From assembly GCA_017461425.1 (NCBI GenBank), contig JAFTXY010000006.1, positions 1-64,000 on the forward strand: 64,000 nt of DNA, given 5' to 3'. Made by a program: the position numbers and the translations under genes. Position 1 is the first letter of the stretch; each line of letters opens with the position of its first letter. Origin of the DNA: Candidatus Gastranaerophilales bacterium. Its GTDB lineage: Bacteria > Cyanobacteriota > Vampirovibrionia > Gastranaerophilales > Gastranaerophilaceae. The notes under the pieces were generated by a model. The model did not search any database and was not told the origin of the DNA. It saw only the letters and a list, made by a program, of their open reading frames with translations. Positions 4,064 to 60,981 of the stretch are shown in pieces.

Positions 4064-5239
4064 TTATTCGAATAATTTTATGTATTTTTCAAACTTTATT
4101 CCTTGCTGATTTCTTGTTAATTTTTCTGCTTTTACTTTTAATATACAAGGTTTTACAATGCCCAATTTAACTAAGTCATCAGCTAAATTTTTAGCAGTTT
4201 GTCTTGTTATATCTAATTTTTTAGAAATATAATTTAATGACATATATGGATGATCATATAAAACGTGTAATAAATTTTGTGCATTAGCCGCTTTTGCACC
4301 TAAATTTATTATTTTTTCACTACACTCATTTTGTAATTTATTAAACTCGTGGTAAATTTTATAAGTATTTTGTGCTGCACTATTTAAAGAATCTAAGAAA
4401 AATTTAATCCATAATTCTAAATCACCGGAGCTATTAGCATTTTTTAGAGCTTCCGTATAATTATCTTTATTTCTTTCAAATATATAAGAAACGTTGAACC
4501 AAGGTTTTTCTAATAAGCCAGAATCTAATAATTGTGCCAGAATTAATAATCTTCCAATCCTACCATTACCATCTTTAAATGGATGAATAGTTTCAAATTG
4601 GTAGTGAAATAAAGCAATCTTAACCAGTATTGGCAATTTTAGCTCATCATTACTCCAAAATTCGCATAAATCCTTTAACAATAGTGGGAGTTCATTCCAG
4701 TGAGGAGGAATAAATTTTGCACTTTTTATTGTATGACCTCCAATCCAGTTTTGAACTTTTCTTATTTCTCCAGGATTTTTATCAGCTCCTCTTACACTAT
4801 CTAGTAATATCGAATGAAGATTTGATATAAATCTCTCACTTATAGGCAATTTTTGTAAATTTTCTTTTAGTTGAAAGGTCGCATTAACATAATTAATAAC
4901 TTCTGCTCTATCTTGCTTTTGTGAAAAATCTGCACTTGAATCTTCTGGAAGTAGGATATCACTAAATGTTGTTCGTGTTCCTTCAATAGAAGAAGATTTA
5001 ACAGCTTCTTGATTTATTAACATTCTAATAAATATATCAATATTTTTTAAATTTCTTGAATCTGCATTTAATTCAGCAATAGCCTTTATTACTTTTTCCG
5101 ATAAAACGTATATTTCAGGGTCATGTATAATAAATCCTTTATTTAAAATGTTTGGCATAAAATATTCATAAGAGACATTCTCATATTCACCGTTTTCGTT
5201 TTTAAATAATTCTTGTGCTTTTTTTAATTCTCCGTACAT
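4064..5239 (-). CDS. Fic-family protein (putative AMP-transferase) with C-terminal winged helix
   Basis: This 391-residue protein carries the Fic catalytic motif HPFKDGNGRIGRLL (about residue 215), matching HxFx(D/E)GNGRxxR; Fic enzymes usually transfer AMP onto target hydroxyls. Around residue 80, SSSIEG matches the class II inhibitory helix motif (S/T)xxxE(G/N), so the enzyme should be self-inhibited. The C-terminal part (SLNYISKKLDITRQTAKNLADD) reads as a winged helix-turn-helix, suggesting DNA binding or autoregulation. GAGGA precedes the ATG. It lies downstream of the DUF2075 gene on the same strand, separated by a hairpin cluster. Both may form a stress or phage-defence unit, which is inference. 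Confidence 0.88.
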   Translation of the reverse strand: MYGELKKAQELFKNENGEYENVSYEYFMPNILNKGFIIHDPEIYVLSEKVIKAIAELNADSRNLKNIDIFIRMLINQEAVKSSSIEGTRTTFSDILLPEDSSADFSQKQDRAEVINYVNATFQLKENLQKLPISERFISNLHSILLDSVRGADKNPGEIRKVQNWIGGHTIKSAKFIPPHWNELPLLLKDLCEFWSNDELKLPILVKIALFHYQFETIHPFKDGNGRIGRLLILAQLLDSGLLEKPWFNVSYIFERNKDNYTEALKNANSSGDLELWIKFFLDSLNSAAQNTYKIYHEFNKLQNECSEKIINLGAKAANAQNLLHVLYDHPYMSLNYISKKLDITRQTAKNLADDLVKLGIVKPCILKVKAEKLTRNQQGIKFEKYIKLFE

Positions 5240-5255
5240 ATATTATTCCTCATGA

Positions 5256-5332
5256 AAAATCATCATCAGAAAAGTTTTCATGATGATTTTACATTAAAAA
5301 TCATCATGAGTCAAATTTTGGTGATGATTTTT
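5256..5332 (-). promoter_or_regulatory. Four-segment alternative-pairing hairpin cluster between helicase and fic genes
   Basis: Four AAAATCATCA-type segments alternate in orientation. The outer pairs form two 11-bp hairpins (5256-5290 and 5296-5332). The inner two form an exclusive, perfect 13-bp hairpin (5278-5290 with 5297-5309, 6-base loop). The cluster spans the stop codon of the DUF2075 gene (5294) and ends just before the fic ribosome-binding site. Mutually exclusive stems of this kind are typical of attenuators, or could be a protein-binding operator. Confidence 0.5.
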
Positions 5333-7321
5333 GTCGATTTTATACAAACCTATATCAATCAAATATTCCCATAATTCATCATAATACTTGCACAGCCTTG
5401 TATTATCAGAATTATCACCCTTAGGAACAAAAATAATAAAACCTTCGCGTGCGCGGGTTAATAATACACGATATGCATTTTTGAGATAACGCCTGTTATC
5501 CTCTTTATTTATAGTTTGCCATTTTGAGCCACTTGGTTTATAACATTCAAAATGCCCGTTTTCATAACGATAATCTGCATCCCAACCAACAAGCGCATAA
5601 TCTATTTCTAAACCTTGAATATCAAATTCTGTTGCAACTTCTTCCATAAAATACGAGGATTTTATATCGTTTTTTTCTTCTAAAAACCATTTTTCTGGTT
5701 TGCATTTATATTCCACCCAAATGCCTTCGGCACGGAGACGTTTAGCTTGTGAACTTGCAATAAGACCATACCTGCAATTTTTACCTTCTGTCTGTTTTTT
5801 AATCCATTCTTTAGCGGTATTCAAATCTCTTGTCATACAGATTGGATAAACCTTTTTAATTTCTTGGTATATCGCTGCAGCTTGTTCTTTTTCATTATTC
5901 AACAAATGATGAACAAAATTAGCGACTTTTTCACTTCTAAATGATCTTAAAGAAATAGATAAATGTAGTTCTCCAACGGTTTTACAATTTAAGCCCTCAA
6001 TTAATGCATCAAAAGAGTTATTGCCAACATACTCTTCTTCTATAATCTTATTTGATACATAAACTTTCCAATCAGGATATGAACGGCGCAAAGAATCAAA
6101 CCATTCTTGAATACCTGCTTCACCTGTGTTTATATCTTGCCCACCGCCAACAAGACAAACTATAACGGCCCAATCCTGATGTCTATTCATATATTCAATA
6201 AGCAATTCAGGTTCACTCATTGAAAGAATTTTATGTCGTTTATCATCTGGTAATTTATTAAGTATTGCGGCTTTCTTTTCATTCATAAAATTTGAAAGTT
6301 GCGCTTGCTGCCAAGCTCTTTGTGCTTCGTCAAAAATTACAACGTTGTCAACCGGCGGAATGTCTAAATTTTTAAGTGATTCGTCCCTAAAATGGTGAAT
6401 TATTTGAATAAAAGATTTTACATTGTCCCTTGCTTCGCCAATAGGAATACCCGTTCTTTTATTATCATCACGAGCTAAAGCTTCTCTTAAAACTGAAACA
6501 AGCGGTTGATTTCCTGTTAAAAAACAAGAATAATTTTTACCTGTCGTTTTTTGATTCTCTATTGCGATATTCAAGCCTGCTAATGTTTTGCCAGCGCCAG
6601 GAACTCCTGTGATAAAGCAAATAGACTTTTGATGATTTTGTTTTGAATATTCAATTATTTTTTGCACTGCAGTAGATGTTTTTGTTAAATTTTCTGCCGC
6701 TTCATTTTTGGAAATATCATCAACTGAATGATTATTATATAAAATCTCAGCCGCTTCAATAATTGTAGGAATCGGAACATAACGGGAATTTAGCCACTTA
6801 TCAAGTTGAATTTGACTACTAAATAATTTTTTGAATTTATCAAAAATTTTAATTAAATTATTGCCATTTGTATAGATTACATCATAAACATTGTTTTTAT
6901 ATTTATTAATCTGCAAATCGCATTCTGAAGCGTCTGTTGCAATAAGTATTGGAACAATTGTTTTATTGTGGCTTTCTTCATGAAAATTTGCCAAGTCTAT
7001 TGCATAAGTTCTTGCTTGTGTAGCTGCAGATCCCGCATAAACTTCATTCCCAACCTTAAATTCTAAAACAAAAATTGTACCATCAAGTAGAACAACATTA
7101 TCTATTCGGCCGCCAACGCGTGGAATGGTGTATTCAAAAATAACACTGCCGTAAGAATATCTATTTAACACATTTTTTAGTAATCTAATTTGAGCAATCC
7201 ATGCATCTTTCTGCTTACAAGCAGAATCAAACTCATCATTTTTAGCAATAATGCCAAATATTTCATCTTCATTTTGATTTAAAAATGTTTTAATATCATT
7301 ACTATAAAAAGCGCTACACAT
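5294..7321 (-). CDS. DUF2075 / Schlafen group 3-type helicase with N-terminal nuclease-like domain
   Basis: The 675-residue protein has a Walker A motif GVPGAGKT near residue 240 and a Walker B-like VVIFDEAQRAW near 330. The tail LLTRAREGFIIFVP matches superfamily I helicase motif VI and the DUF2075 (Schlafen group 3) family. The N-terminal segment GGRIDNVVLLDG...FVLEFKVG (about 70-92) fits a PD-(D/E)xK nuclease core. Such nuclease-helicase proteins are frequent in prokaryotic defence islands. GGAAG precedes the start. It sits upstream of fic with an unusual hairpin cluster between. Family call is firm; the defence role is inferred. Confidence 0.82.
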   Translation of the reverse strand: MCSAFYSNDIKTFLNQNEDEIFGIIAKNDEFDSACKQKDAWIAQIRLLKNVLNRYSYGSVIFEYTIPRVGGRIDNVVLLDGTIFVLEFKVGNEVYAGSAATQARTYAIDLANFHEESHNKTIVPILIATDASECDLQINKYKNNVYDVIYTNGNNLIKIFDKFKKLFSSQIQLDKWLNSRYVPIPTIIEAAEILYNNHSVDDISKNEAAENLTKTSTAVQKIIEYSKQNHQKSICFITGVPGAGKTLAGLNIAIENQKTTGKNYSCFLTGNQPLVSVLREALARDDNKRTGIPIGEARDNVKSFIQIIHHFRDESLKNLDIPPVDNVVIFDEAQRAWQQAQLSNFMNEKKAAILNKLPDDKRHKILSMSEPELLIEYMNRHQDWAVIVCLVGGGQDINTGEAGIQEWFDSLRRSYPDWKVYVSNKIIEEEYVGNNSFDALIEGLNCKTVGELHLSISLRSFRSEKVANFVHHLLNNEKEQAAAIYQEIKKVYPICMTRDLNTAKEWIKKQTEGKNCRYGLIASSQAKRLRAEGIWVEYKCKPEKWFLEEKNDIKSSYFMEEVATEFDIQGLEIDYALVGWDADYRYENGHFECYKPSGSKWQTINKEDNRRYLKNAYRVLLTRAREGFIIFVPKGDNSDNTRLCKYYDELWEYLIDIGLYKIDKNHHQNLTHDDF

Positions 7322-7464
7322 CTTTCATTCTTCCTTTATGCCTATTTTAACATGAATATTTATATCTTTTTTATGCAATACGTGTCTTTTTGTAAAATCT
7401 TTCCTGCTTTTTCGCTTTTCTGATTCCTTTCATGTATTGTGTTTCGTGATGTTAGGAAGGGATT

Positions 7465-7722
7465 ATGCAAGAAGTTGGATACAATATTACAAATAAAGAA
7501 TTTAAGCAAATTAGCAAATGGGCAGAAAACATTTATAATATATCCGTTATTGTTTATTATTTCGTAAGCAATCAACCTGAAATAGAAGAATGTTACAACC
7601 TCACGCCTGTTATTAAAACTTTAAGAGATAACGCAGATTTATTAAATGCGTTTTTATTGATAACGAAAAATAATTTCGACTTCAGACCTTTTGCAAAAAA
7701 TTTCCGACCAAGAAAAATTTGA
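7465..7722 (+). CDS. Small hypothetical protein, divergent from the helicase-fic pair
   Basis: An 85-residue, mostly helical product begins MQEVGYNITNKEFKQ, preceded by AGGAAGGG. There is no signal peptide or membrane segment. It is transcribed away from the DUF2075 gene from a shared intergenic region of about 140 bp. Acidic-helical small proteins at such sites are sometimes antitoxins or regulators, but no family is recognised. Confidence 0.55.
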   Translation: MQEVGYNITNKEFKQISKWAENIYNISVIVYYFVSNQPEIEECYNLTPVIKTLRDNADLLNAFLLITKNNFDFRPFAKNFRPRKI

Positions 7723-8145
7723 ACTTAAAAAACAATAAAATTTTAATACAACAAAACCAACGAATAGTACTTTCAAGCGTACAAAATGCCGGAAAGGTTC
7801 AAAATCGCAAAAACTCTTTTGCGGACAGAATTAGGACACAAGTTCTAACCTATCGGACTCGTTGGTTCAAAAAATGGACTTTCAGGACTGAGCTATGTTA
7901 CTATTCGTTGGTTACTTCCAACGGCAGAAACCTTTACACAACGGGCAAAAAGGCAAAAATAGTATTTAACTGTACAGATACACTGTCCTGAAAAAATACA
8001 GAAGCGAAGCGAAATGCCGAAGTAGCAAAAACAAAAAACGAGTCAAATTGACGAGTGGCTTGTTTTTGTGAAGCAATAATCCAAGAAAAGCGGTTGCTCC
8101 GAGACGCCTGTCTTATAAATCTACTTTAATTAAAAACAAAAAATT
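7723..8145. other. 423-bp stretch without a convincing gene
   Basis: A frame of 90 codons exists on the plus strand but starts at a TTG overlapping the previous stop, has no ribosome-binding site and a composition unlike a folded protein. A hairpin (CAAAAACAA / TTGTTTTTG arms) lies at about 8026-8079. Base composition is more GC-rich than the neighbours. It looks like decayed accessory DNA or an uncharacterised structured RNA beside tRNA-Phe. Confidence 0.4.
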
Positions 8146-8218
8146 TGCCGCGTCTCGGAATCGAACCAAGGACACAGGGATTTTCAGTCCCTTGCTCTAC
8201 CAACTGAGCTAACGCGGC
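8146..8218 (-). tRNA. tRNA-Phe (GAA)
   Basis: The minus strand folds into a 73-base cloverleaf: acceptor GCCGCGT / ACGCGGC with discriminator A, D-arm GCTCAGTTGGTAGAGC, anticodon loop CTGAAAA with anticodon GAA, and T-arm with GGTTCGATTCC. No CCA is encoded. Its 5' end is duplicated 100 bp away. Confidence 0.95.
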
Positions 8219-8325
8219 AAATCTATTTAATTTTCAAACTTATGGACTCAGCTGGCAGAGCCATGCTCTACGTTTCTTTATCCGTTCCGCTTTGCTCCAC
8301 TTTGAGAGCTAACGCGGCAAATCTA
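8206..8325. repeat. 20-bp direct repeat of the tRNA-Phe 5' end, plus a tRNA D-arm-like fragment
   Basis: The 20 bases GAGCTAACGCGGCAAATCTA at 8206-8225 (the tRNA-Phe 5' end and flank) recur exactly at 8306-8325, an offset of exactly 100 bp. Between the copies, CTCAGCTGGCAGAGC at about 8244-8260 looks like the D-arm of another tRNA on the plus strand. This is what remains after integration or recombination at a tRNA gene, and it marks one side of the accessory region. Confidence 0.6.
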
Positions 8326-47951: not shown

Positions 47952-50033
47952 ATGGGCCCAAGAGAGCAATCTAATCCATTATCAGAGATAGCTTTAGCCA
48001 CATTTGTCATAATAGCAATTTTAATTTTGCTTTTAGAAATGCCTACTTGGGTTGTAAACTTTTCAATAAGTTTTAATATCACTCTTGGTATCGTACTTTT
48101 AATGATATCATTATACGTTAACAAACCATTAGAACTTGCTGCATTCCCATCAATTTTGCTTATTGGTACAGTTTTTAGATTAGTTTTATCAATTGCATCA
48201 ACCCGTTTAATTTTGGCAAAAGGTGATGCCGGCGAAGTTGTAGAAGCGTTCGGAAACTTCGTAACAGGCGGAAATATGGTTGTTGGTGGTGTAATTTTCT
48301 TAATTATCACCGTTGTACAATTTATGGTAATCACAAAAGGTGCTGAACGTATCGCCGAAGTTTCTGCTCGTTTTGCACTGGACGCTATGCCTGGTAAGCA
48401 GATGACAATTGATGCTGACTTTAACGCAGGTTTAATTTCTCCAGAAGAAGCTGTCAAACGTCGTGAAGACTTGCAAAGAGAATCAAGTTTATATGGTTCT
48501 ATGGATGGTGCGATGAAATTCGTTAAAGGTGATACCATTGCAGGTATCATTATTACTTTAATTAATATCATTGGCGGTTTAATCATTGGTATTTTATTAA
48601 ATGGAATGCAACCAGCAGATGCTGTTCAAAAATACACTATTTTAACAATTGGTGATGGTCTTGCAGCACAAGTTCCATCGTTATTAATGGCAATTTCATC
48701 AGGTATCGTTATGACTCGTGCAACAGGCGGTGGCGTTGCATTGGGTTCTGATTTAGCTGTTCAAATTTTATCTAAACCAACAAGTTTATTTTTAGCAGCA
48801 GGGTTCCTATTATTAATTGCAGTTACTTCAGGAATAACAGGACTACCTTGGTTCCCATTTGTAATATTTGCAGCAGTTCTTATTATGGGTGGTTTATCGG
48901 TTTTGGTAAACCAAGATGTTCAACAACAATTGGGTCAATTAGACGCTGTTAAACAAAATATGCAAGATTTAGTTAATCCAAACAAAATGTATGAAAGACT
49001 TGGTGTTGACGTTTTATCTTTACAAGTTGGTGCAGGATTATTAGTTATTGCAGACCCTGAACAAGATGGACAATTGTTAGCTAAAATTGCAGCTTTAAGA
49101 CAAAGAGTTACTGATGACCTTGGTTATATTATTCCAAACATAAGAATTATGGATTCGTCAGCAATCGGCGATAATGAATATTTGATTTCTATTCGTGGCA
49201 ACCCAGTTGCAACAGGAACAGTTTATCCTGGTAAATTAATGGTTATTGCTGATCAATATGAAGCTTTAGGTAAAACTTTACCTGAAACAGCTATTGTATC
49301 AGTTGAACCAACATTCCAATCGCAAGCATATTGGTTAAATCCACAACATATTAATAAAAATGATAAACTTCAAGCGGTTGATGCGGTTGATGTTATCGTA
49401 ACGCATTTACAAGAATGCGTACGTAAATATGTTGATGAAGTTATGACAAAAACAGATGTCTTAAAATTAATGGAACTTGTAAAATCACAAGACCCAACAT
49501 TAGTTAACGACCTTGTTCCAACAATCATTTCTACCTCAGATTTAAGAAAAATCTTCGTAAATCTAATTAGAGAAAAAGTTTCTATAAAAGACGTTATCTT
49601 TATATTTGAAAGATTATGTGATTATGCAAGATTTTCTAAAGAACCTGATATCTTATCAGAACGTTTAAGAGCAGCTTTAGGTAGACAAATATGCTTATCA
49701 AATGCTAATAAAGAAAAGGTTCTATATGCGCTAACTTTATCATCTGAATGGGAAAAAATATTAGATGATAGCTGTCAAAGAACAGAATTGGGAACAATGT
49801 TCTTGTTAAATCCAATGCAAGTTCAAGAATTGATTGAATCAACAGCAAATACCCTAATGCGTGCACAAGCAGCAGTTGGCGCTCAACCTGTTATTTTATG
49901 TTCGCCTAGAATTCGCTTGCCTTTATATCAAATGCTTGAAAGACATATTCCAACAATAGTTGTTATATCTTATTCTGAATTAATTACTGACATCAGAGTT
50001 GAAGCAATTGATACAATTGGAGAAGGATATTAA
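47952..50033 (+). CDS. flhA: Flagellar export gate protein FlhA
   Basis: The 693-residue protein has about eight membrane helices in its first half (ILILLLEMPTWVVNFSISFN, PSILLIGTVFRLVLSIAS) and the conserved FHIPEP-like cytoplasmic loop (ARFALDAMPGKQMTIDADFN). The large C-terminal domain follows. It forms the export gate with FlhB. The family is very conserved, so the assignment is firm. Its stop overlaps the convergent activase gene by four bases. Confidence 0.96.
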   Translation: MGPREQSNPLSEIALATFVIIAILILLLEMPTWVVNFSISFNITLGIVLLMISLYVNKPLELAAFPSILLIGTVFRLVLSIASTRLILAKGDAGEVVEAFGNFVTGGNMVVGGVIFLIITVVQFMVITKGAERIAEVSARFALDAMPGKQMTIDADFNAGLISPEEAVKRREDLQRESSLYGSMDGAMKFVKGDTIAGIIITLINIIGGLIIGILLNGMQPADAVQKYTILTIGDGLAAQVPSLLMAISSGIVMTRATGGGVALGSDLAVQILSKPTSLFLAAGFLLLIAVTSGITGLPWFPFVIFAAVLIMGGLSVLVNQDVQQQLGQLDAVKQNMQDLVNPNKMYERLGVDVLSLQVGAGLLVIADPEQDGQLLAKIAALRQRVTDDLGYIIPNIRIMDSSAIGDNEYLISIRGNPVATGTVYPGKLMVIADQYEALGKTLPETAIVSVEPTFQSQAYWLNPQHINKNDKLQAVDAVDVIVTHLQECVRKYVDEVMTKTDVLKLMELVKSQDPTLVNDLVPTIISTSDLRKIFVNLIREKVSIKDVIFIFERLCDYARFSKEPDILSERLRAALGRQICLSNANKEKVLYALTLSSEWEKILDDSCQRTELGTMFLLNPMQVQELIESTANTLMRAQAAVGAQPVILCSPRIRLPLYQMLERHIPTIVVISYSELITDIRVEAIDTIGEGY

Positions 50034-53984: not shown

Positions 53985-55712
53985 TTAACTATTCTTTTTG
54001 CACCAGCTACTGTTTAACGTATAACCATCATAACATCCTGTGCATTTAACTCCGCTACCATCTGATTTTGGTGTGCACCATAAACACCAAGACCACCAAT
54101 CCCAACATGATGCACATGCCCATTTGCCACTTGTAAAATTACCGCTACCACCGTCAAAAGTAGCTTTTGAATAAACGGTTCCACCATAAGTAGTACCCCA
54201 AGCAGGTGTTGCTGCGCATCCTGCTGATGTGCATCCATTAGCATCACATGCTGTACATTTTGAACCATATACTTCGCTACAAGATACACATTGTCCGTTA
54301 ATATATGATTGACCAGCAGTACATGTTTGGCATTCGCTTGAACTTGTTGCGCCTGTTCCTGTTGTTGTAGCACCTGTTGGACAAGGAGTACAAGAATATT
54401 GACCAGACCATGGGTTATATGTATCTTTTGGACATGGAGTACAAGTAGTTCCATTTATATACGTACCAGCGCCACAAGTATAGCATTTACCACCACTTAA
54501 ATAATATCCGCTTTGACAAGCGGTGCAAGTATTCAAATCTGTGCATTCAGCACAAGCTGTTAACACACTTGAACATTTTGTGCATGATGTTGATTTTTTA
54601 TTAGCGCCATAACCTGTTTCGCAGCTATATTTATTCATACCATCGCATTTTGTATCTATAGGGCAATCCGTACATACTTTGTTTAATATATATTGACCAT
54701 TATCAGGACATTTTATTTGTTTACAACCCGTATTAGATGCTTTTTGATACATATCACCATATACAGCCTTACATAGTTTACATTCAGATTGCGCAGTTGC
54801 ATCTTGAAATTCATCTGCACCGGAACATGCAACTCTATTTTTACCATCACACTTATATCCTGCCTCACAAGCAACACATTTACCGCTTGATAAATAATAT
54901 CCAGCTTTACATTGTATACAAGTACTTAAATCAGTGCATTCTAAACAATTTGAAGTAAGGGCAGAAACTGTAGAACATACAGTACAAGACGCAGAATTAG
55001 CATTAGCACCTTGTCCACCACCACATTGAATTTGAGATTTGCCATCACAATAATTATCAATTGCACATCCTGAACATTCATTATTTGAATTTAAATAATA
55101 TCCAGCATCACATTGTATACATTTTTGGTCTTTAAAATCAATACATTCATAACAATGTACTAAAGCCGGAACATTTCTACATACGGCACAGTAATTTGAA
55201 CCTAAATTAGAGCCTTGTTGTTCAGGGCAATGTTCCTTACTGGTTAAGGTGCAACTGTGATCTAATGGGCATAGTTTACAAGTTGTTTGTCCTTCAATAT
55301 CTTGATAACTTGTTGCAGGGCATGGTTCACATTTATTTGTTGTCGTATTTAATTTGTAACCAACAGTACATTTTTTACATTTATCTTTTTCGCATAAAAT
55401 ACAACCTGCACCAACTGATGCTGAACAATCTATACATTTACAAGAAGCTGTGTCTTTATATTCTGTTGGTTTACAATTTTTATTACAAGAATAACATGTG
55501 TTTTTCTTGCATAAAGAACAATCTTCATCAATATGATCGCAACTTGTTTTAATTGTGTTTGTAGTTAAAGCAGGGTTTTTTAACCTCTTTGTCATAACAG
55601 GAGCAAACGCTGCTGTAGCTATAGATACGATTATAAGCATCCCTAGCATTTCAAACATCGAAAAAGCTTTTGAAAATTTCATTTTTGCATTTATTTTCTT
55701 AATTAATTGCAT
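53985..55712 (-). CDS. Cysteine-rich surface protein with prepilin-type anchor (third copy)
   Basis: The 575-residue protein begins KFSKAFSMFEMLGMLIIV, a prepilin-like signal (Ala-Phe cleavage, Glu at +5) and helix, then FAPVMTKRLKNP. From residue 40 on it is a string of CxxC modules such as GYYLSSGKCVACEAGYKCDG, CSGADEFQDATAQSECKLC and CTACQSGYYLSGGKCYTCG. It ends with an aromatic block CWDWWSWCLWCTPKSDG. It resembles the next copy upstream over the C-terminal third. GGAAG precedes the ATG. It is the last gene of the operon, 32 bases after the second copy. No signal peptidase I site is seen. Confidence 0.8.
   Translation of the reverse strand: MQLIKKINAKMKFSKAFSMFEMLGMLIIVSIATAAFAPVMTKRLKNPALTTNTIKTSCDHIDEDCSLCKKNTCYSCNKNCKPTEYKDTASCKCIDCSASVGAGCILCEKDKCKKCTVGYKLNTTTNKCEPCPATSYQDIEGQTTCKLCPLDHSCTLTSKEHCPEQQGSNLGSNYCAVCRNVPALVHCYECIDFKDQKCIQCDAGYYLNSNNECSGCAIDNYCDGKSQIQCGGGQGANANSASCTVCSTVSALTSNCLECTDLSTCIQCKAGYYLSSGKCVACEAGYKCDGKNRVACSGADEFQDATAQSECKLCKAVYGDMYQKASNTGCKQIKCPDNGQYILNKVCTDCPIDTKCDGMNKYSCETGYGANKKSTSCTKCSSVLTACAECTDLNTCTACQSGYYLSGGKCYTCGAGTYINGTTCTPCPKDTYNPWSGQYSCTPCPTGATTTGTGATSSSECQTCTAGQSYINGQCVSCSEVYGSKCTACDANGCTSAGCAATPAWGTTYGGTVYSKATFDGGSGNFTSGKWACASCWDWWSWCLWCTPKSDGSGVKCTGCYDGYTLNSSWCKKNS
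54298..54374 (-). repeat. 77-bp identical tract, copy in the third Cys-rich gene
   Basis: Every base from 54298 to 54374 matches 56034-56110 in the neighbouring gene (offset 1736). It encodes part of the shared CPSGATTTGTGATSSSECQ and CTAGQSYING stretch. Flanks differ, pointing to recent gene conversion or duplication. Confidence 0.9.
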
Positions 55713-55744
55713 TTAATACTTCCATATCTTTTAATTTATACTTA

Positions 55745-57430
55745 CTACAAGTGACAATCATGTCCATCATAACATTTTTTACATTTAACCCCGTCCGTTT
55801 TAGGAGTGCACCACAAACACCATGTCCACCAATCCCAACATGGTGCACACGCCCATTTATCATCTGTAAGATGATTATTGGTACTTGTATATGTAGCTAT
55901 TGCATAAACTGTTCCACCATACCAACCAGTACCACCTTGCGCAACAGCATTACATCCGGCTGATGTACATCCATTACTATCACATGCTGTACATTTTTCA
56001 CCATATACTTCGCTACATGTTACACATTCTCCATTAATATATGATTGACCAGCAGTACATGTTTGGCATTCGCTTGAACTTGTTGCGCCTGTTCCTGTTG
56101 TTGTAGCACCACTTGGACAATTTGTACAAGATGTTGCAGCATATGAAGAATTATATGTATCTTTTGGACAAGCATAGCAAGTACCACCACTTAAATACTT
56201 ACCAGCACCGCAACCATAGCACTGACCACCACTTAAATAATATCCACTTTGGCAAGCTATACATGCACCATTATTATTGCATTTGGTGCAGGCTGAAATC
56301 GTACATTTCTGACAAGCGCATGAACCAGCTGGAGCATACTCATCAGAAGCACAAATTGCGGGACCAGCAGTTCCGCCAATACATTTACTTCCTGCTGGAC
56401 ATAGTTCGCAAAGTCCGCCATTATAATATCTGCCACAATCACATCCTAAATCATTACATGCTGTTCTTGACTCATTTGCCTCTGTTCCTGATGGACAAGG
56501 TTCACAAGTTGCTTGTCCAGTATTTGGTTGTATATATCCTGCAGGACATTTTGTTGGAGTTGTAGCCCCTTGTGGACATTTATGCCCAACAGGACATTCT
56601 ATACATTTGCCATTACTTTTATATGTACCCTCTTCGCAATCAACACATGTTGATAAATTTGTACATTCAAGACAACGACCTAAACCATCAGCCGTTCTAC
56701 AAATATCACATTTAGCGCTTCCGGCATCTGCACCGGTTCCAGCTGGACAATTTTCACAAGCAACACCATCGGAAGATTTTTGATCCTCGCCACATTTCTG
56801 ACATTTGCCACCTGTAATATAATAACCTGCTGCACATTTTGTACATACACTTGTATTTGAACATTCTTTGCATTGCTCATGAATCTTTACGGAGCAAAAT
56901 TCGCATGTAGCAGCGCCCTCATCTGAACCTTTCCCTGCAAGGCAAGGTTTATTTTCTGAACCATCTACAGCCTGACATTCATAATCTTCAGGACATTTAA
57001 TACAAGATAATTGTCCTTCTAAATTTTGATATGTACCAGCTGCGCATTTTGTACAAGTTTTATCAGCGTTTAAATAATATCCAGCAGCACATTTTGCACA
57101 AGTATTTTTACTAGCACAAGCTTTACAAGCCTCAATACCGCAATCTTCACATCTACATATTTCCGTATCATTAATTTCTGGGGGTTTGCATTCATTTGTG
57201 CAAGCATAACAAGTATCTTTTTTACATAAAGCACAAGCTGAACTTATATGTTCACAATTTGTTGTTACTTTAACATTAATTTTATTTGTTGTAGTTAATT
57301 TTTTTGTTAAAACTGGGGTAAAAGCAGCCATAATACCACCAACGACCATTAAAGACAACACTATTTCCATTAAAGAAAAAGCTTTTGAATCTTTTATTTT
57401 ATTTAATATATTTTTTATTTTATTAAACAT
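55745..57430 (-). CDS. Cysteine-rich surface protein with prepilin-type anchor (second copy)
   Basis: The 561-residue protein has a 16-residue leader, KDSKAFSLMEIVLSLMVVGG, then FTPVLTKKLTT, and again hundreds of residues of CxxC repeats (CAKCAAGYYLNADKTCTKC, CPAGTGADAGSAKC). It ends CWDWWTWCLWCTPKTDG. Its ATG directly follows the TAG of the first copy, with AAGGAGG 10 bases upstream, so it is co-translated. A 77-bp stretch is identical to the third copy. Confidence 0.82.
   Translation of the reverse strand: MFNKIKNILNKIKDSKAFSLMEIVLSLMVVGGIMAAFTPVLTKKLTTTNKINVKVTTNCEHISSACALCKKDTCYACTNECKPPEINDTEICRCEDCGIEACKACASKNTCAKCAAGYYLNADKTCTKCAAGTYQNLEGQLSCIKCPEDYECQAVDGSENKPCLAGKGSDEGAATCEFCSVKIHEQCKECSNTSVCTKCAAGYYITGGKCQKCGEDQKSSDGVACENCPAGTGADAGSAKCDICRTADGLGRCLECTNLSTCVDCEEGTYKSNGKCIECPVGHKCPQGATTPTKCPAGYIQPNTGQATCEPCPSGTEANESRTACNDLGCDCGRYYNGGLCELCPAGSKCIGGTAGPAICASDEYAPAGSCACQKCTISACTKCNNNGACIACQSGYYLSGGQCYGCGAGKYLSGGTCYACPKDTYNSSYAATSCTNCPSGATTTGTGATSSSECQTCTAGQSYINGECVTCSEVYGEKCTACDSNGCTSAGCNAVAQGGTGWYGGTVYAIATYTSTNNHLTDDKWACAPCWDWWTWCLWCTPKTDGVKCKKCYDGHDCHL
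56034..56110 (-). repeat. 77-bp identical tract, copy in the second Cys-rich gene
   Basis: Partner of 54298-54374, with the same bases throughout. The two genes are otherwise clearly diverged outside the C-terminal third. Confidence 0.9.
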
Positions 57431-59053
57431 CTAGCTGCATCCTCCTTGTTTGCAACCCCTATTGCCAGTGCATTTATACCAACCGTTTGTTTCCCAACAA
57501 TCATCACATTCATATGCACCATTTTCTCCATTTGCCCCACATTTACCACATTGCTTCCAATAAGAAGGGCAATAATCACAAGACCACTTACCTGCTGTTG
57601 CATTGCTATTTGTTACAGTTGCAATACCATACACAATCGTATATTTATCATCAGTTACATCACAACCTGATTTACTACAACCATTGGTTGCATCACATTT
57701 TGTGCAATATTTTCCAAATTTTGTACAACTTAAACAAGAGGTCCCACTCTTATATTGTCCTGATGGGCATTCTGGACATGTTGTCATTGCAACAGTTTCT
57801 GCATTAGCGCAAGCTATGCAGCTTGTTTGACCAGTATTTGGTTGATATGTACCAATGCTGCAAGCTGTTTTTGATATACCATCACAATAATATCCAGCAG
57901 GACATATTGTACAACCTGTTCCATTTTTATAATACCCTGAATTACAACGAGTACAAGTTGATGAACTAGAACAAACACTGCAATTTGCAATGTTTGAACA
58001 AGCATCACAATTACAACCATTTAAATAGGATACTGAGTTGCATGATGTACAGCAATTTAAACTAGAACATTTTTCACAATTTTCAAGTCTAGTATTACAT
58101 TTTGAACAAACAGTTGCACCTGCATCTGAACTATAACCAGAAGAGCATGAATACATATCTTTTCCATCAGGACAATATGTTCCAATTTCACATTGTTTAC
58201 AAGCACCATCAGTTTGTTTATATTGTCCTGCTGGACATGTTGTTGGAACATTTTTTTTACATTTTCCATTAGTTAACGTATAACCACTTTCACAAGCAGT
58301 ACAGCTTGTTGGACTAGAACATGCGGTGCAATACGGAATTAAAATATTACATGCAGTGCAAGATGTACTTCCAGCAAGCGAAGTTGTACCGCCAGAACAT
58401 TTAGTTCGACTAACTCCATTACACCAATATTCTGCTGTGCATTCAACACAACTTCCACTGCTGACATAATGCGTACTTATGCATTTAGTACAAGCGGACG
58501 TGCTTTTACATTCAATACAATTTGTTTTTTGACTATTACAAGGATGGCAATAGCTATTACCTGCGTTTGAACCATAACCTAAGCCACAAAGAATTTTTTC
58601 TTTTGTTGTACAAGAATGCCCCTCATCACAAGATTTACAAGTAGTTTGACCGGGAGCATCTTGATATGTTCCACCTGTTGCTGTTGCGCTGTTAGCCGAC
58701 ATTGTGCAAGCAACACAATTATTTCCGGATTTTTTATATCCAACATCACATCTTTGACAAACACCACCAGCACCGCATTCTAAACAACCTTCTGAACAAT
58801 CTACGCATTTGCAATTAACCGTATCTTTATACTGGTTAATTCCGCAGTCTATTTTGCAATGGTAACAAGTATTCCCCTTGCATAAAGTACAAAAGGCATT
58901 AATTGCACCACAATCTGTCTTAATTGAATTTTGCGCTATTGCCTTTTTTTGATGTTTTTTTGTCATAGAAGGCGCAAACGCAGTTATTATAACTGAAACA
59001 ATTATTAAAGATATGAGAACTTCAACTAATGAAAAAGCTTTTAAAAATTTCAC
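57431..59053 (-). CDS. Cysteine-rich surface protein with prepilin-type anchor (first copy)
   Basis: The 540-residue protein starts at a GTG with GAGGT upstream. The leader MKFLKAFSLVEVLISLIIV has the prepilin pattern (Ala-Phe cleavage, Glu at +5) and an N-terminal helix, then FAPSMTKKHQKK. I count about 78 cysteines, 14% of the residues, in modules such as CTKCISTHYVSSGSCVEC, CTACESGYTLTNGKCKK and CPAGYYCDGISKTACSIG. The end has an aromatic block (CDYCPSYWKQCGKCG). The CxxC repeats recall GCC2/GCC3 or furin-like repeats and Giardia variable surface proteins. It is probably extracellular and disulfide-rich. Confidence 0.82.
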   Translation of the reverse strand: MKFLKAFSLVEVLISLIIVSVIITAFAPSMTKKHQKKAIAQNSIKTDCGAINAFCTLCKGNTCYHCKIDCGINQYKDTVNCKCVDCSEGCLECGAGGVCQRCDVGYKKSGNNCVACTMSANSATATGGTYQDAPGQTTCKSCDEGHSCTTKEKILCGLGYGSNAGNSYCHPCNSQKTNCIECKSTSACTKCISTHYVSSGSCVECTAEYWCNGVSRTKCSGGTTSLAGSTSCTACNILIPYCTACSSPTSCTACESGYTLTNGKCKKNVPTTCPAGQYKQTDGACKQCEIGTYCPDGKDMYSCSSGYSSDAGATVCSKCNTRLENCEKCSSLNCCTSCNSVSYLNGCNCDACSNIANCSVCSSSSTCTRCNSGYYKNGTGCTICPAGYYCDGISKTACSIGTYQPNTGQTSCIACANAETVAMTTCPECPSGQYKSGTSCLSCTKFGKYCTKCDATNGCSKSGCDVTDDKYTIVYGIATVTNSNATAGKWSCDYCPSYWKQCGKCGANGENGAYECDDCWETNGWYKCTGNRGCKQGGCS

Positions 59054-59173: not shown

Positions 59174-59770
59174 TTAAATTTCTATTCTTCCCTCTAAGGC
59201 CCTTGCAAGAGTAATTTCATCAGCATATTCAAGCTCGGAACCAATTGGAATTCCAAAAGCAATTCTTGTAATCTTTATATTAAAAGGTTTTAATAATTTA
59301 TTAAGATATAAACTTGTCGCCTCACCCTCAACAGATGGATTTAATGCTAAAATAACTTCTTTTATATCATTTTGATTAATTCTATATAAAAGTTCTTTTA
59401 TTCTAATATCATCTGGTCCAATACCATCAATGGGAGAAATTAAACCTTGTAAGACATGATATTGCCCATGGTATTCGTTTGTTTTTTCTATTGCCATCAA
59501 ATCTTTTGTTTCGCCAACAACGCAAATTACAGATTTATTTCTTGTTGGGTCAGAACATATTTCACAAGGGTTAGAACAAGACATGTTAAAACAATTTTGA
59601 CAATAAGCGATTTTTGTTTTTGCATCAATTAAGGCATTAGAAAAATTTTGAACTTCGTTTTCGCTCATTTTAATAATATGCAAAGCTAACCTCATAGCCG
59701 TTTTAGGACCTATTGAGGGTAGCTTTTGAAAATATTCTATTAATCTTGCAAGCGGTTTTGTGTATTCCAT
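59174..59770 (-). CDS. recR: Recombination protein RecR
   Basis: The 198-residue protein has the helix-hairpin-helix start (LPSIGPKTAMRLALHI), the C4 zinc finger CQNCFNMSCSNPCEIC, the Toprim domain (VICVVGETKDLMAIE) and the ending TLARALEGRIEI. It works with RecO/RecF in daughter-strand gap repair. It is the second gene of the ybaB-recR pair. Confidence 0.95.
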   Translation of the reverse strand: MEYTKPLARLIEYFQKLPSIGPKTAMRLALHIIKMSENEVQNFSNALIDAKTKIAYCQNCFNMSCSNPCEICSDPTRNKSVICVVGETKDLMAIEKTNEYHGQYHVLQGLISPIDGIGPDDIRIKELLYRINQNDIKEVILALNPSVEGEATSLYLNKLLKPFNIKITRIAFGIPIGSELEYADEITLARALEGRIEI

Positions 59771-59794: not shown

Positions 59795-60130
59795 CTAGAA
59801 TAATCCAGGAATAGAAATACCACCTGTAATTGATTTCATTTTAGCTTCCATTTGATTTGTTGCTTTGTTTGTAGCATCAGATAAAGCTTCTGTTAATAAA
59901 TCTTCCAACATTTCAATTGTATCAGCATCAACTGAAGCAGGGTTTGATGGATTAATTGCTTCAGGAGTTAATTTTATTGATTTAAATTTTCCTTGTCCAT
60001 TCAAAACGGCAGTAACAGCGCCATTTCCAGATGTTGAAATAACCTCTATATTCTCAAGCTCGCCTTGTGTTTCTTTGAATTTTTTTTGCATTTTTTGAGC
60101 TTGTTGCATAATTTGCATCATATTCATCAT
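59795..60130 (-). CDS. YbaB/EbfC nucleoid-associated protein
   Basis: The 111-residue product has MQIMQQAQKMQKKFKETQGE, NGQGKFKSIKLTPEA and the helical C-terminus LEDLLTEALSDATNKAT, all typical of YbaB. It binds DNA as a dimer. It precedes recR by 24 bases, the widespread arrangement. Confidence 0.93.
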   Translation of the reverse strand: MMNMMQIMQQAQKMQKKFKETQGELENIEVISTSGNGAVTAVLNGQGKFKSIKLTPEAINPSNPASVDADTIEMLEDLLTEALSDATNKATNQMEAKMKSITGGISIPGLF

Positions 60131-60195
60131 AATTTTATGTTTCTCCCTGGTATCTAGTTTATATCTTTATACATTATATGCTATTATATTTTTAT

Positions 60196-60981
60196 ATGCA
60201 AACAATTACTTATCTAGATGACTGTTTTAATAAAGGAAAATTGTCCAGATGGGCAGATAATGTCATGCCTTTAAAAGTTTTCATAGGTAAATTTAATTGG
60301 TACAAATCTGCAGGCGCATCTGATGAATATAAATACACTCAAATGATTATTGATGGATTTAATCTTTGGGAAAGTTTATCTGGCGGATTGGTTTCATTTG
60401 AACGCACAATGAATTTATATGATTCAAATATAAATATTGAATGGAAAAGAGTAGAAAGAAAATCGCTTGGCTCTTGCACATTTAATTTCGATAAACAAGG
60501 AAGATATTATTCAGCAGAACTATCAATCGGATTATCTGATGGAATTATTCATCACCAATATATGGATGAAAACGAAGTTTTTCACACAATAATCCATGAA
60601 ATTGGACACTCGATTGGTTTGGGACATTCTAAAACAAAAGGCGATATCATGTATGTTCCACATGAATATGGAGTCGTTAATATTTCTGATAATGACCTTG
60701 AAACCCTGAAATGGCTTTATAAATTTCCTGTTGGAAAAACCGAGGGTGAAATTTTAGCACAATATGCAAATTATAACGCCAAAAGTTTAGATGAATTAGT
60801 TTACAAAATCAACAAAGAAGGATATAAATCCGATTTTGAAAAAACAAAAGAAGAAATCTTAAAAACAAGCGAACCAACAAAAGATTTACTGCAAGAAAAT
60901 GAAAATATTGGCGATTTAAAAAAATATTTAATGCAAATAAACAATTTAAATTTAAATGTTAACTATAAGCCAAAAAAATAG
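60196..60981 (+). CDS. Matrixin-like zinc metalloprotease
   Basis: The zinc motif HEIGHSIGLGH, followed by GDIMYVPHEYG (Met-turn), matches the HExxHxxGxxH metzincin pattern of matrixins. About 261 residues, with a C-terminal helical extension of roughly 70 residues. No signal peptide is seen, so export is unclear, which is odd for a matrixin. An ATG at 60178 is also in frame; neither start has a good ribosome-binding site. It is divergent from ybaB. Confidence 0.82.
   Translation: MQTITYLDDCFNKGKLSRWADNVMPLKVFIGKFNWYKSAGASDEYKYTQMIIDGFNLWESLSGGLVSFERTMNLYDSNINIEWKRVERKSLGSCTFNFDKQGRYYSAELSIGLSDGIIHHQYMDENEVFHTIIHEIGHSIGLGHSKTKGDIMYVPHEYGVVNISDNDLETLKWLYKFPVGKTEGEILAQYANYNAKSLDELVYKINKEGYKSDFEKTKEEILKTSEPTKDLLQENENIGDLKKYLMQINNLNLNVNYKPKK

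What the first reader, a model, noticed from the sequence alone, without database searches (positions are those of the whole stretch)
53985..59053. Operon of three cysteine-rich proteins on prepilin-type anchors
Three consecutive genes (540, 561 and 575 residues) share a prepilin-like leader with Ala instead of Gly before the cleavage site (KAFSLVE, KAFSLME, KAFSMFE), a short helix ending in FAPSMTKK-type segments, a conserved first Cys module, and then hundreds of residues of CxxC-rich repeats resembling furin/GCC2-GCC3 repeats and protist variable surface proteins. The pieces are seen directly. Linking a pilin-type anchor to protist-like Cys repeats is unusual, and I know of no named system of this kind. 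A surface fibre or adhesin, assembled by a pilus or type II secretion machine and hardened by disulfides, is inference.
Basis: partly seen in the sequence, partly recalled or inferred. Interest (0 to 1): 0.87.

Follow-up and report, generated by a model that had tools for sequence, protein, structure and literature searches.

The report
Disulfide-rich modular pilins in gut cyanobacteria
Three neighbouring genes of an uncultured gut relative of cyanobacteria encode long cysteine-rich rods mounted on a pilus-type membrane anchor, and they belong to a large gene family in which many relatives carry a lectin-like tip, in several species visibly rewritten by a mutation-making reverse transcriptase.

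Summary
Three ORFs (575, 561, 540 aa) carry a prepilin-type leader, a pilin-type helix with Glu+5 and Pro+22, and 74/76/78 cysteines, all outside the membrane, with 29-30 CxxC each against shuffled means of 9-11. Ala before the cleavage site is ordinary. The named relatives are Candidatus Gastranaerophilales.

The family is multicopy. In loci of named relatives plus the window, 58 of 58 complete anchored ORFs also have the first Cys module (the search favoured this). Tips differ: C-type-lectin (CLec) 36, Gly-rich 6, Cys-only 14 (trio included), other 2. In relatives CLec tips are targets of diversity-generating retroelements (DGRs): TR-to-VR mismatches fall on template adenines in 19 of 20 and 24 of 26, and one template matches several anchored Cys-rich genes. 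In the window genome no reverse transcriptase and no CLec domain was found, so the trio is not a DGR target. Genes 1 and 2 share a 3' block peaking at 92% DNA identity in ~50% surroundings: module exchange.

Best reading: minor, tip-type modular pilins with a disulfide rod, an adhesin family. Pilus assembly is inferred; PilB, PilD and secretin were not found in this 78%-complete genome.

The parts
53985..55712 (-). gene 1, 575 aa: prepilin leader (cleavage predicted after KA), pilin-type helix, Cys-rich rod (74 Cys)
55745..57430 (-). gene 2, 561 aa: same architecture (76 Cys); modelled as a row of small beta-hairpin modules, last ~70 aa not modelled with confidence
57431..59053 (-). gene 3, 540 aa, GTG start, first gene of the presumed operon (78 Cys)
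58955..59053 (-). leader + pilin-type helix of gene 3 (Glu+5, Pro+22)
57296..57430 (-). leader + pilin-type helix of gene 2
   Evidence: helix in the model
55581..55712 (-). leader + pilin-type helix of gene 1
54025..54521 (-). 3' block of gene 1 shared with gene 2 (79.6% DNA identity over 505 columns, 40-codon windows up to 92%, longest identical run 77 nt); read as module exchange between paralogues
55764..56257 (-). matching 3' block of gene 2

Best explanation
The three genes encode modular type IV pilins, most likely minor, tip-type subunits. The short leader would be cut after Ala by prepilin peptidase. The hydrophobic helix with Glu+5 and Pro+22 would insert into a type IV filament. The ~500-residue ectodomain, a row of small ephrin-receptor/furin/EGF-like modules, would be oxidised by the VKOR-DsbA fusion protein into a stiff disulfide rod that displays a variable C-terminal cap outside the cell as an adhesin. 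Shown: the architecture, the family, the tip classes, the DGR signature in relatives, the shared block of genes 1 and 2, and the oxidase gene. Inferred: cleavage, filament insertion, surface exposure, disulfide state, adhesion.
For: Anchor: the columns for Glu+5 and Pro+22 are invariant in the 20-row alignment (rows were picked with Glu in the pattern, Pro was not required there). Cys: even counts, all extracellular, CxxC about threefold over shuffles. Fold: profile and model match extracellular disulfide-bonded chains: mastigoneme Mst1 (7e-27 by sequence, 1.4e-10 by Foldseek), ELAPOR1, R-spondins, thyroglobulin. Oxidase: VKOR and DSBA domains in one 404-aa protein of the window's genome. Family: 23 of 23 same-genus relatives match gene 2 at E <= 1e-3. 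Pilus machine in the genus: PilB-type ATPase, prepilin peptidase and secretin in 5 of 5 near-complete relatives, T2SSF, T2SSE and secretin ORFs adjacent in G242. Tips and DGR. Module exchange. Precedent: modular pilins with grafted adhesive domains (PMC8179133, passages).
Confidence: 0.6

Rival explanations
1. The prepilin leader serves only as a membrane anchor: the rods stand in the periplasm or reach out from the inner membrane without entering any filament.
For: No PilB, PilD or secretin found in this genome; no globular pilin head in the model; ectodomains of ~500 residues would be bulky in a filament.
Against: Glu+5 and Pro+22 are kept, which a plain anchor would not need; five of five near-complete relatives have the machine; large modular pilins are known to be pilus subunits (PMC8179133, passages).
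Confidence: 0.2
2. The proteins are structural: they polymerise into a disulfide-hardened fibre or coat, like mastigoneme protein, without a ligand-binding role.
For: The best Foldseek and sequence match is the Chlamydomonas mastigoneme filament; three similar subunits in one presumed operon.
Against: Relatives' tips are lectin-type domains, hypermutated in some species, which points to binding; gene 3's cap differs strongly from those of genes 1 and 2.
Confidence: 0.12
3. The trio are relics of the lectin-tipped family in a lineage that lost the DGR and the tips.
For: No RVT_1 and no CLec match in the window genome.
Against: Three intact ORFs with even Cys counts; Cys-only members also occur as intact ORFs in a genome that has a DGR-type RT (L129, L145, L147-L149 of the G242 assembly).
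Confidence: 0.05
4. The CxxC motifs bind metal or act in redox chemistry, not in disulfide rods.
For: CxxC is also a metal-binding motif; gut habitats are largely anaerobic (general knowledge).
Against: Exported architecture; spacing and fold match disulfide modules; 4-6 His per protein and no CxxCH; the genome has a disulfide oxidase gene.
Confidence: 0.03

Closest known systems
Modular type IV pilins (PilB and PilC of Streptococcus sanguinis; InterPro survey of >1,200 proteins and 264 architectures, PMC8179133, passages read)
   Same: Class III leader and pilin helix with an extra, non-pilin functional module displayed outward; large size; several modules per protein are known.
   Different: There a globular pilin head lies before the graft; here Cys modules follow the helix directly. 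The word cysteine does not occur in the main text of that paper (find). Multicopy families with DGR-written tips were not in the passages I read.
DGR variable proteins with CLec fold (DUF1566/Lcl_C class; Roux et al. 2021 PMC8144416, Yan et al. 2019 PMC6642488, passages read; author names recalled)
   Same: Relatives of the trio carry CLec domains with TR/VR adenine mutagenesis, an Avd-type ORF and RT; membrane-anchored targets are common, and putative pilin structures linked to DUF1566 are mentioned in PMC6642488.
   Different: The window trio has neither CLec nor DGR. In relatives the rod is Cys-rich and one template matches many paralogues. DGR targets in photosynthetic cyanobacteria are mostly predicted cytosolic, most often kinase-like (PMC7517822, passages).
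Mastigoneme protein Mst1 of Chlamydomonas (PDB 8tx1, 8wa2, 9b4h)
   Same: Long array of ephrin-receptor-like Cys modules in an extracellular fibre.
   Different: Eukaryotic, no pilin anchor; similarity may be convergent.
Giardia variant surface proteins and apicomplexan GCC2/GCC3 proteins (recalled; search listing only for the Babesia family PMC9843837)
   Same: CxxC-rich multigene surface families.
   Different: No pilin anchor; no shared descent was tested here.

Membership tests
Type IV pilin / modular pilin | Class III leader ending in Gly or Ala, then a hydrophobic helix with Glu+5 | tested here: met
   N_methyl over cut-off for gene 3 only; genes 1 and 2 by alignment
Type IV pilin / modular pilin | Globular pilin head after the helix | tested here: inconclusive
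   no head is modelled, residues 38-53 low confidence, Cys modules follow; exceptions exist in the literature (passage)
Type IV pilin / modular pilin | Assembly machine (PilB, PilD, secretin) in the same genome | tested here: inconclusive
   found in 5 of 5 near-complete relatives, not in the 77.7%-complete window genome
Type IV pilin / modular pilin | Cleavage by PilD and presence in a filament | not testable with these tools
   needs cells
Ephrin_rec_like PF07699 | Score over the curated cut-off | tested here: met
   genes 1 (58 bits) and 2 (60 bits) over 23.1; gene 3 at 22.3 just under
Furin-like repeats | Score over the curated cut-off | tested here: not met
   Furin-like_2 19.3 bits in gene 2 against 28; none reported in genes 1 and 3 at E <= 1
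DGR target protein (window trio) | CLec variable region | tested here: not met
   0 CLec matches in G000; 0 in the trio
DGR target protein (window trio) | DGR reverse transcriptase in the genome | tested here: not met
   0 RVT_1 matches in the held genome, which is 77.7% complete
DGR target protein (relatives L107, L108, L114, L115, L117, L121, L123, L130, L132, L141, L144) | VR differs from a TR of the same genome mainly at TR adenines | tested here: met
   15 VRs in 11 ORFs, from 12 of 12 down to 24 of 44 mismatches at A, p 6e-4 to 5e-12 (mismatches taken as independent); 21 family loci were given, the other 10 gave no match to the TR; L180 (20 of 45, p 0.017) and one L181 copy (12 of 43) do not show it
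Protist VSP / GCC2-GCC3 surface families | Common descent with the protist proteins | not tested
   no eukaryote genome collection at hand

The most novel reading that the evidence does not exclude
A genus of non-photosynthetic gut cyanobacteria displays on its pili a repertoire of disulfide-rod modular pilins with exchangeable tips, kept diverse by two mechanisms: one retroelement template that rewrites lectin tips across many paralogues, and exchange of Cys modules between paralogues. The window trio is the recombination-only branch.
Probability: 0.4. Interest if true: 0.88.

Novelty: new variant of a known kind. Interest (0 to 1): 0.72.

Why it matters
It joins three things not found together in my searches: a pilin anchor, a protist-like disulfide rod and, in relatives, a DGR-written lectin tip, in an uncultured lineage of gut bacteria. 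If true, it names what a DGR diversifies at the surface of a gut commensal and gives a testable display route: pilus, disulfide oxidase, template.

Tried and rejected
Phage or plasmid origin: gene 2 has no tblastn match in the phage or plasmid collections, and the family profile finds no relative in viral contigs (4 pattern matches, none confirmed).

Ala at -1 as a special class: rejected.

Conserved locus: recR lies upstream of the trio, but in 0 of 20 relatives examined does an anchored Cys-rich family gene follow recR within the 1.3-5.4 kb held. One search finds recR in 26 of 28 genus genomes, G000 included; I took 20 of the 25 others. L251 has an anchor-type ORF about 4 kb downstream, without the Cys rod. 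RecR is 78-88% identical, while the best-scoring relative of gene 2 is at 41%, so the insertion is lineage-specific or the genes turn over fast.

Neisseria-like silent cassettes: many contigs of relatives begin or end inside the conserved 5' part, which first suggested identical 5' repeats. Within genomes the shared stretches there that pass 90% identity and 80 bp are mostly 84-112 bp, several of 250-560 bp and one of 1100 bp; none in CALVET. Module exchange is supported, a silent-cassette system is not shown.

DGR in the window: looked for and not found. Of the seven loci with a DGR-type RT, an A-biased TR/VR pair was seen inside two (L178, L179); L180 is weak, L181 has a 12-of-43 copy and a partial one at 6 of 6, L177 is not A-biased, and L182 and L183 gave no such pair. 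In G009 (L177) the repeat beside the RT differs from the VR at T, not A (1 of 16 at A); I have no settled explanation. CLec genomes without a DGR-type RT found: 12 of 19.

The solved-chain profile search with the CLec alignment found nothing at E <= 0.01, and the fold search of the L104 model has no match at E <= 0.001; Lcl and Bd2740 lead it at 1.3e-3 and 5.5e-3.

Habitat of the named MAGs: one paper search gave nothing.
Full report
WHAT IS THERE. One search gives three ORFs on the - strand: gene 3 (57431-59053, 540 aa, GTG), gene 2 (55745-57430, 561 aa) and gene 1 (53985-55712, 575 aa), with gaps of 0 and 32 bp. Upstream in the same direction lie recR (59174-59770) and a YbaB-type gene (59795-60130); downstream is a convergent acetyltransferase-like ORF and a tRNA-Arg (gene names recalled from sequence). 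No - strand terminator-like site lies in the gaps; promoter-like sites are at chance level (33 found, 34.2 expected). Each protein starts with a short basic leader ending in KA, then F-S-x-x-E and a hydrophobic helix with Pro at +22. All 74, 76 and 78 cysteines lie after the helix. CxxC counts of 29, 30 and 29 compare with shuffled means of 9.3, 10.2 and 11.0 (maxima 18, 21, 20 of 2000 shuffles), so the pattern is not chance. Pfam puts Ephrin_rec_like over its cut-off in genes 1 and 2 and just under it in gene 3.

WHOSE GENOME. The window lies in a 1.45-Mb assembly of 18 contigs, 77.7% complete. The 80 loci kept (of 101 confirmed) come from MAGs titled Candidatus Gastranaerophilales bacterium or, for one assembly (CASDOW), uncultured bacterium. 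The host animals are not named in the titles that I saw; that the lineage lives in guts is from the literature (PMC5877343, passages).

THE FAMILY. Gene 2 finds matches at E <= 1e-3 in 23 of 23 same-genus relatives and in 2 of 15 genomes of other genera (26 of 39 in all, own included). In the listed rows, matches that run through the Cys module come from 14 of the 16 genus genomes (G005 and G205 show the anchor only). The listed rows of other genera come from 5 of the 26 genomes and stop at model position 87 or earlier. I looked at one locus of each of these five: Gly-rich or other ectodomains with 2-21 Cys in the stretch held (L064-L067, L069). In the loci of named relatives plus the window, 84 ORFs match the anchor, 26 are cut by contig ends and 58 are complete; all 58 have the first Cys module (the confirmation step behind these loci used that module, so this is partly by construction). 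Tips by thresholds set in that script: 36 have one to three CLec domains, 6 are Gly-rich, 14 are Cys-only (no CLec call, at least 10% Cys; three are the window trio), 2 other. In the window genome the profile finds three full members, all in the window; four prepilin-type places with anchor-level similarity sit near the end of contig 17.

THE DGR IN RELATIVES. Twelve of 28 genus genomes have RVT_1 matches; of the 18 matched loci, seven, in seven genomes, show the DGR-type motif GNLTSQ (meaning of the motif recalled). An Avd-type ORF precedes the RT in L180 (NCBIfam DivGenRetAVD 41.8 bits, under its cut-off of 80; Pfam bAvd 36.4 against 40). TR against VR: in L178 (G005), 19 of 20 mismatches are at TR adenines; in L179 (G016), 24 of 26. 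The TR of G019 was compared with nine family loci and that of G242 with twelve (one 700-base stretch each ties the named and unnamed assemblies together). Six VRs in five ORFs and nine VRs in six ORFs show A-biased mismatches, from 12 of 12 down to 24 of 44, p 6e-4 to 5e-12 with mismatches taken as independent; all 11 ORFs carry the anchor and 39-83 Cys; the other 10 loci gave no match to the TR. Rows that do not fit: L180's own neighbour (20 of 45, p 0.017), one L181 copy (12 of 43) and G009's repeat (1 of 16 at A); L182 and L183 showed no TR/VR pair in the stretch held. CLec domains occur in 19 of 28 genus genomes, from 2 to 105 matches each, and none was found in the window genome. All seven genomes with DGR-type RT are among the 19; for the other 12 no DGR-type RT was found, by loss or by assembly gaps. 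The model of one lectin-tipped relative (L104; pLDDT 82.6) matches the C-terminal domain of Legionella Lcl and Bdellovibrio Bd2740 best (E 1.3e-3 and 5.5e-3, probability 1.00; no match at E <= 0.001), and Pfam gives Lcl_C at 30.8 bits, under its 34.9 cut-off.

HOW IT MAY WORK. Shown: a VKOR-DsbA fusion in this genome and VKOR in 6 of 6 genomes tested, a route to disulfides. In five near-complete relatives a PilB-type ATPase, prepilin peptidase and secretin are all present, with T2SSF, T2SSE and secretin ORFs adjacent in G242. In the window genome only shorter T2SSE-type ATPases, PilT-like by size, were found. Whether the missing parts fall in the missing fifth of the genome cannot be told. Inferred: the leader is cut, the helix enters a filament, the rod is oxidised and holds the cap away from the cell as an adhesin.

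COMPARISON. The nearest named kind is the modular pilin: a functional domain grafted on a pilin (PMC8179133: more than 1,200 proteins, 264 architectures; passages). The trio works like one on anatomy; the absence of a modelled pilin head and the machine genes not found leave membership open. DGR surveys note membrane-anchored cellular targets (PMC8144416) and putative pilin structures linked to DUF1566 (PMC6642488), so pilin-linked DGR targets have been hinted at (passages). For Gastranaerophilales, partial sets of pilus genes are reported, and pilA, B, C, T and D in one termite-gut member (PMC5877343, passages). In photosynthetic cyanobacteria DGR targets are mostly predicted cytosolic (PMC7517822, passages). 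I found no paper that joins pilin anchor, Cys repeats and DGR in this lineage in the listings of searches; the library is open-access only.

VERDICT. The family is a new variant of a known kind (modular pilins), made more interesting by the DGR-written tips of its relatives, which were not found in the window genome itself.

Noticed in passing
L177 (G009:C3:72000-86000), 4818-5030 and 6957-7169: The repeat beside a DGR-type RT differs from the VR at T rather than A (1 of 16 at A), as if both copies had been mutated from an unseen template; G009 also has 105 CLec matches.
   Followed up: partly
L148 7119-7289 and L149 7253-7423, with matches near other CALUWJ genes: A largely non-coding stretch of ~150-170 bp, 93-99% identical, lies at or just downstream of the end of several family genes in one assembly, with small hairpins; role unknown.
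   Followed up: no
L048 (G000:C17) 5184-8286: Several prepilin-type genes at a contig end; two look Gly-rich by eye, and the one scanned matched only N_methyl, under its cut-off, in Pfam.
   Followed up: partly
window 60178-60981 (+): ORF with HEIGHSIGLGHS, a matrixin-like zinc metalloprotease motif, close to the operon (motif recalled).
   Followed up: no
window 47952-50033 (+): FlhA-like flagellar export gene (name recalled), in a lineage where motility is debated (PMC5877343, passage).
   Followed up: no
L028 (G033:C21): A 2402-aa open frame of another family matches only the Cys repeats of gene 2 in the row listed, without the anchor.
   Followed up: no
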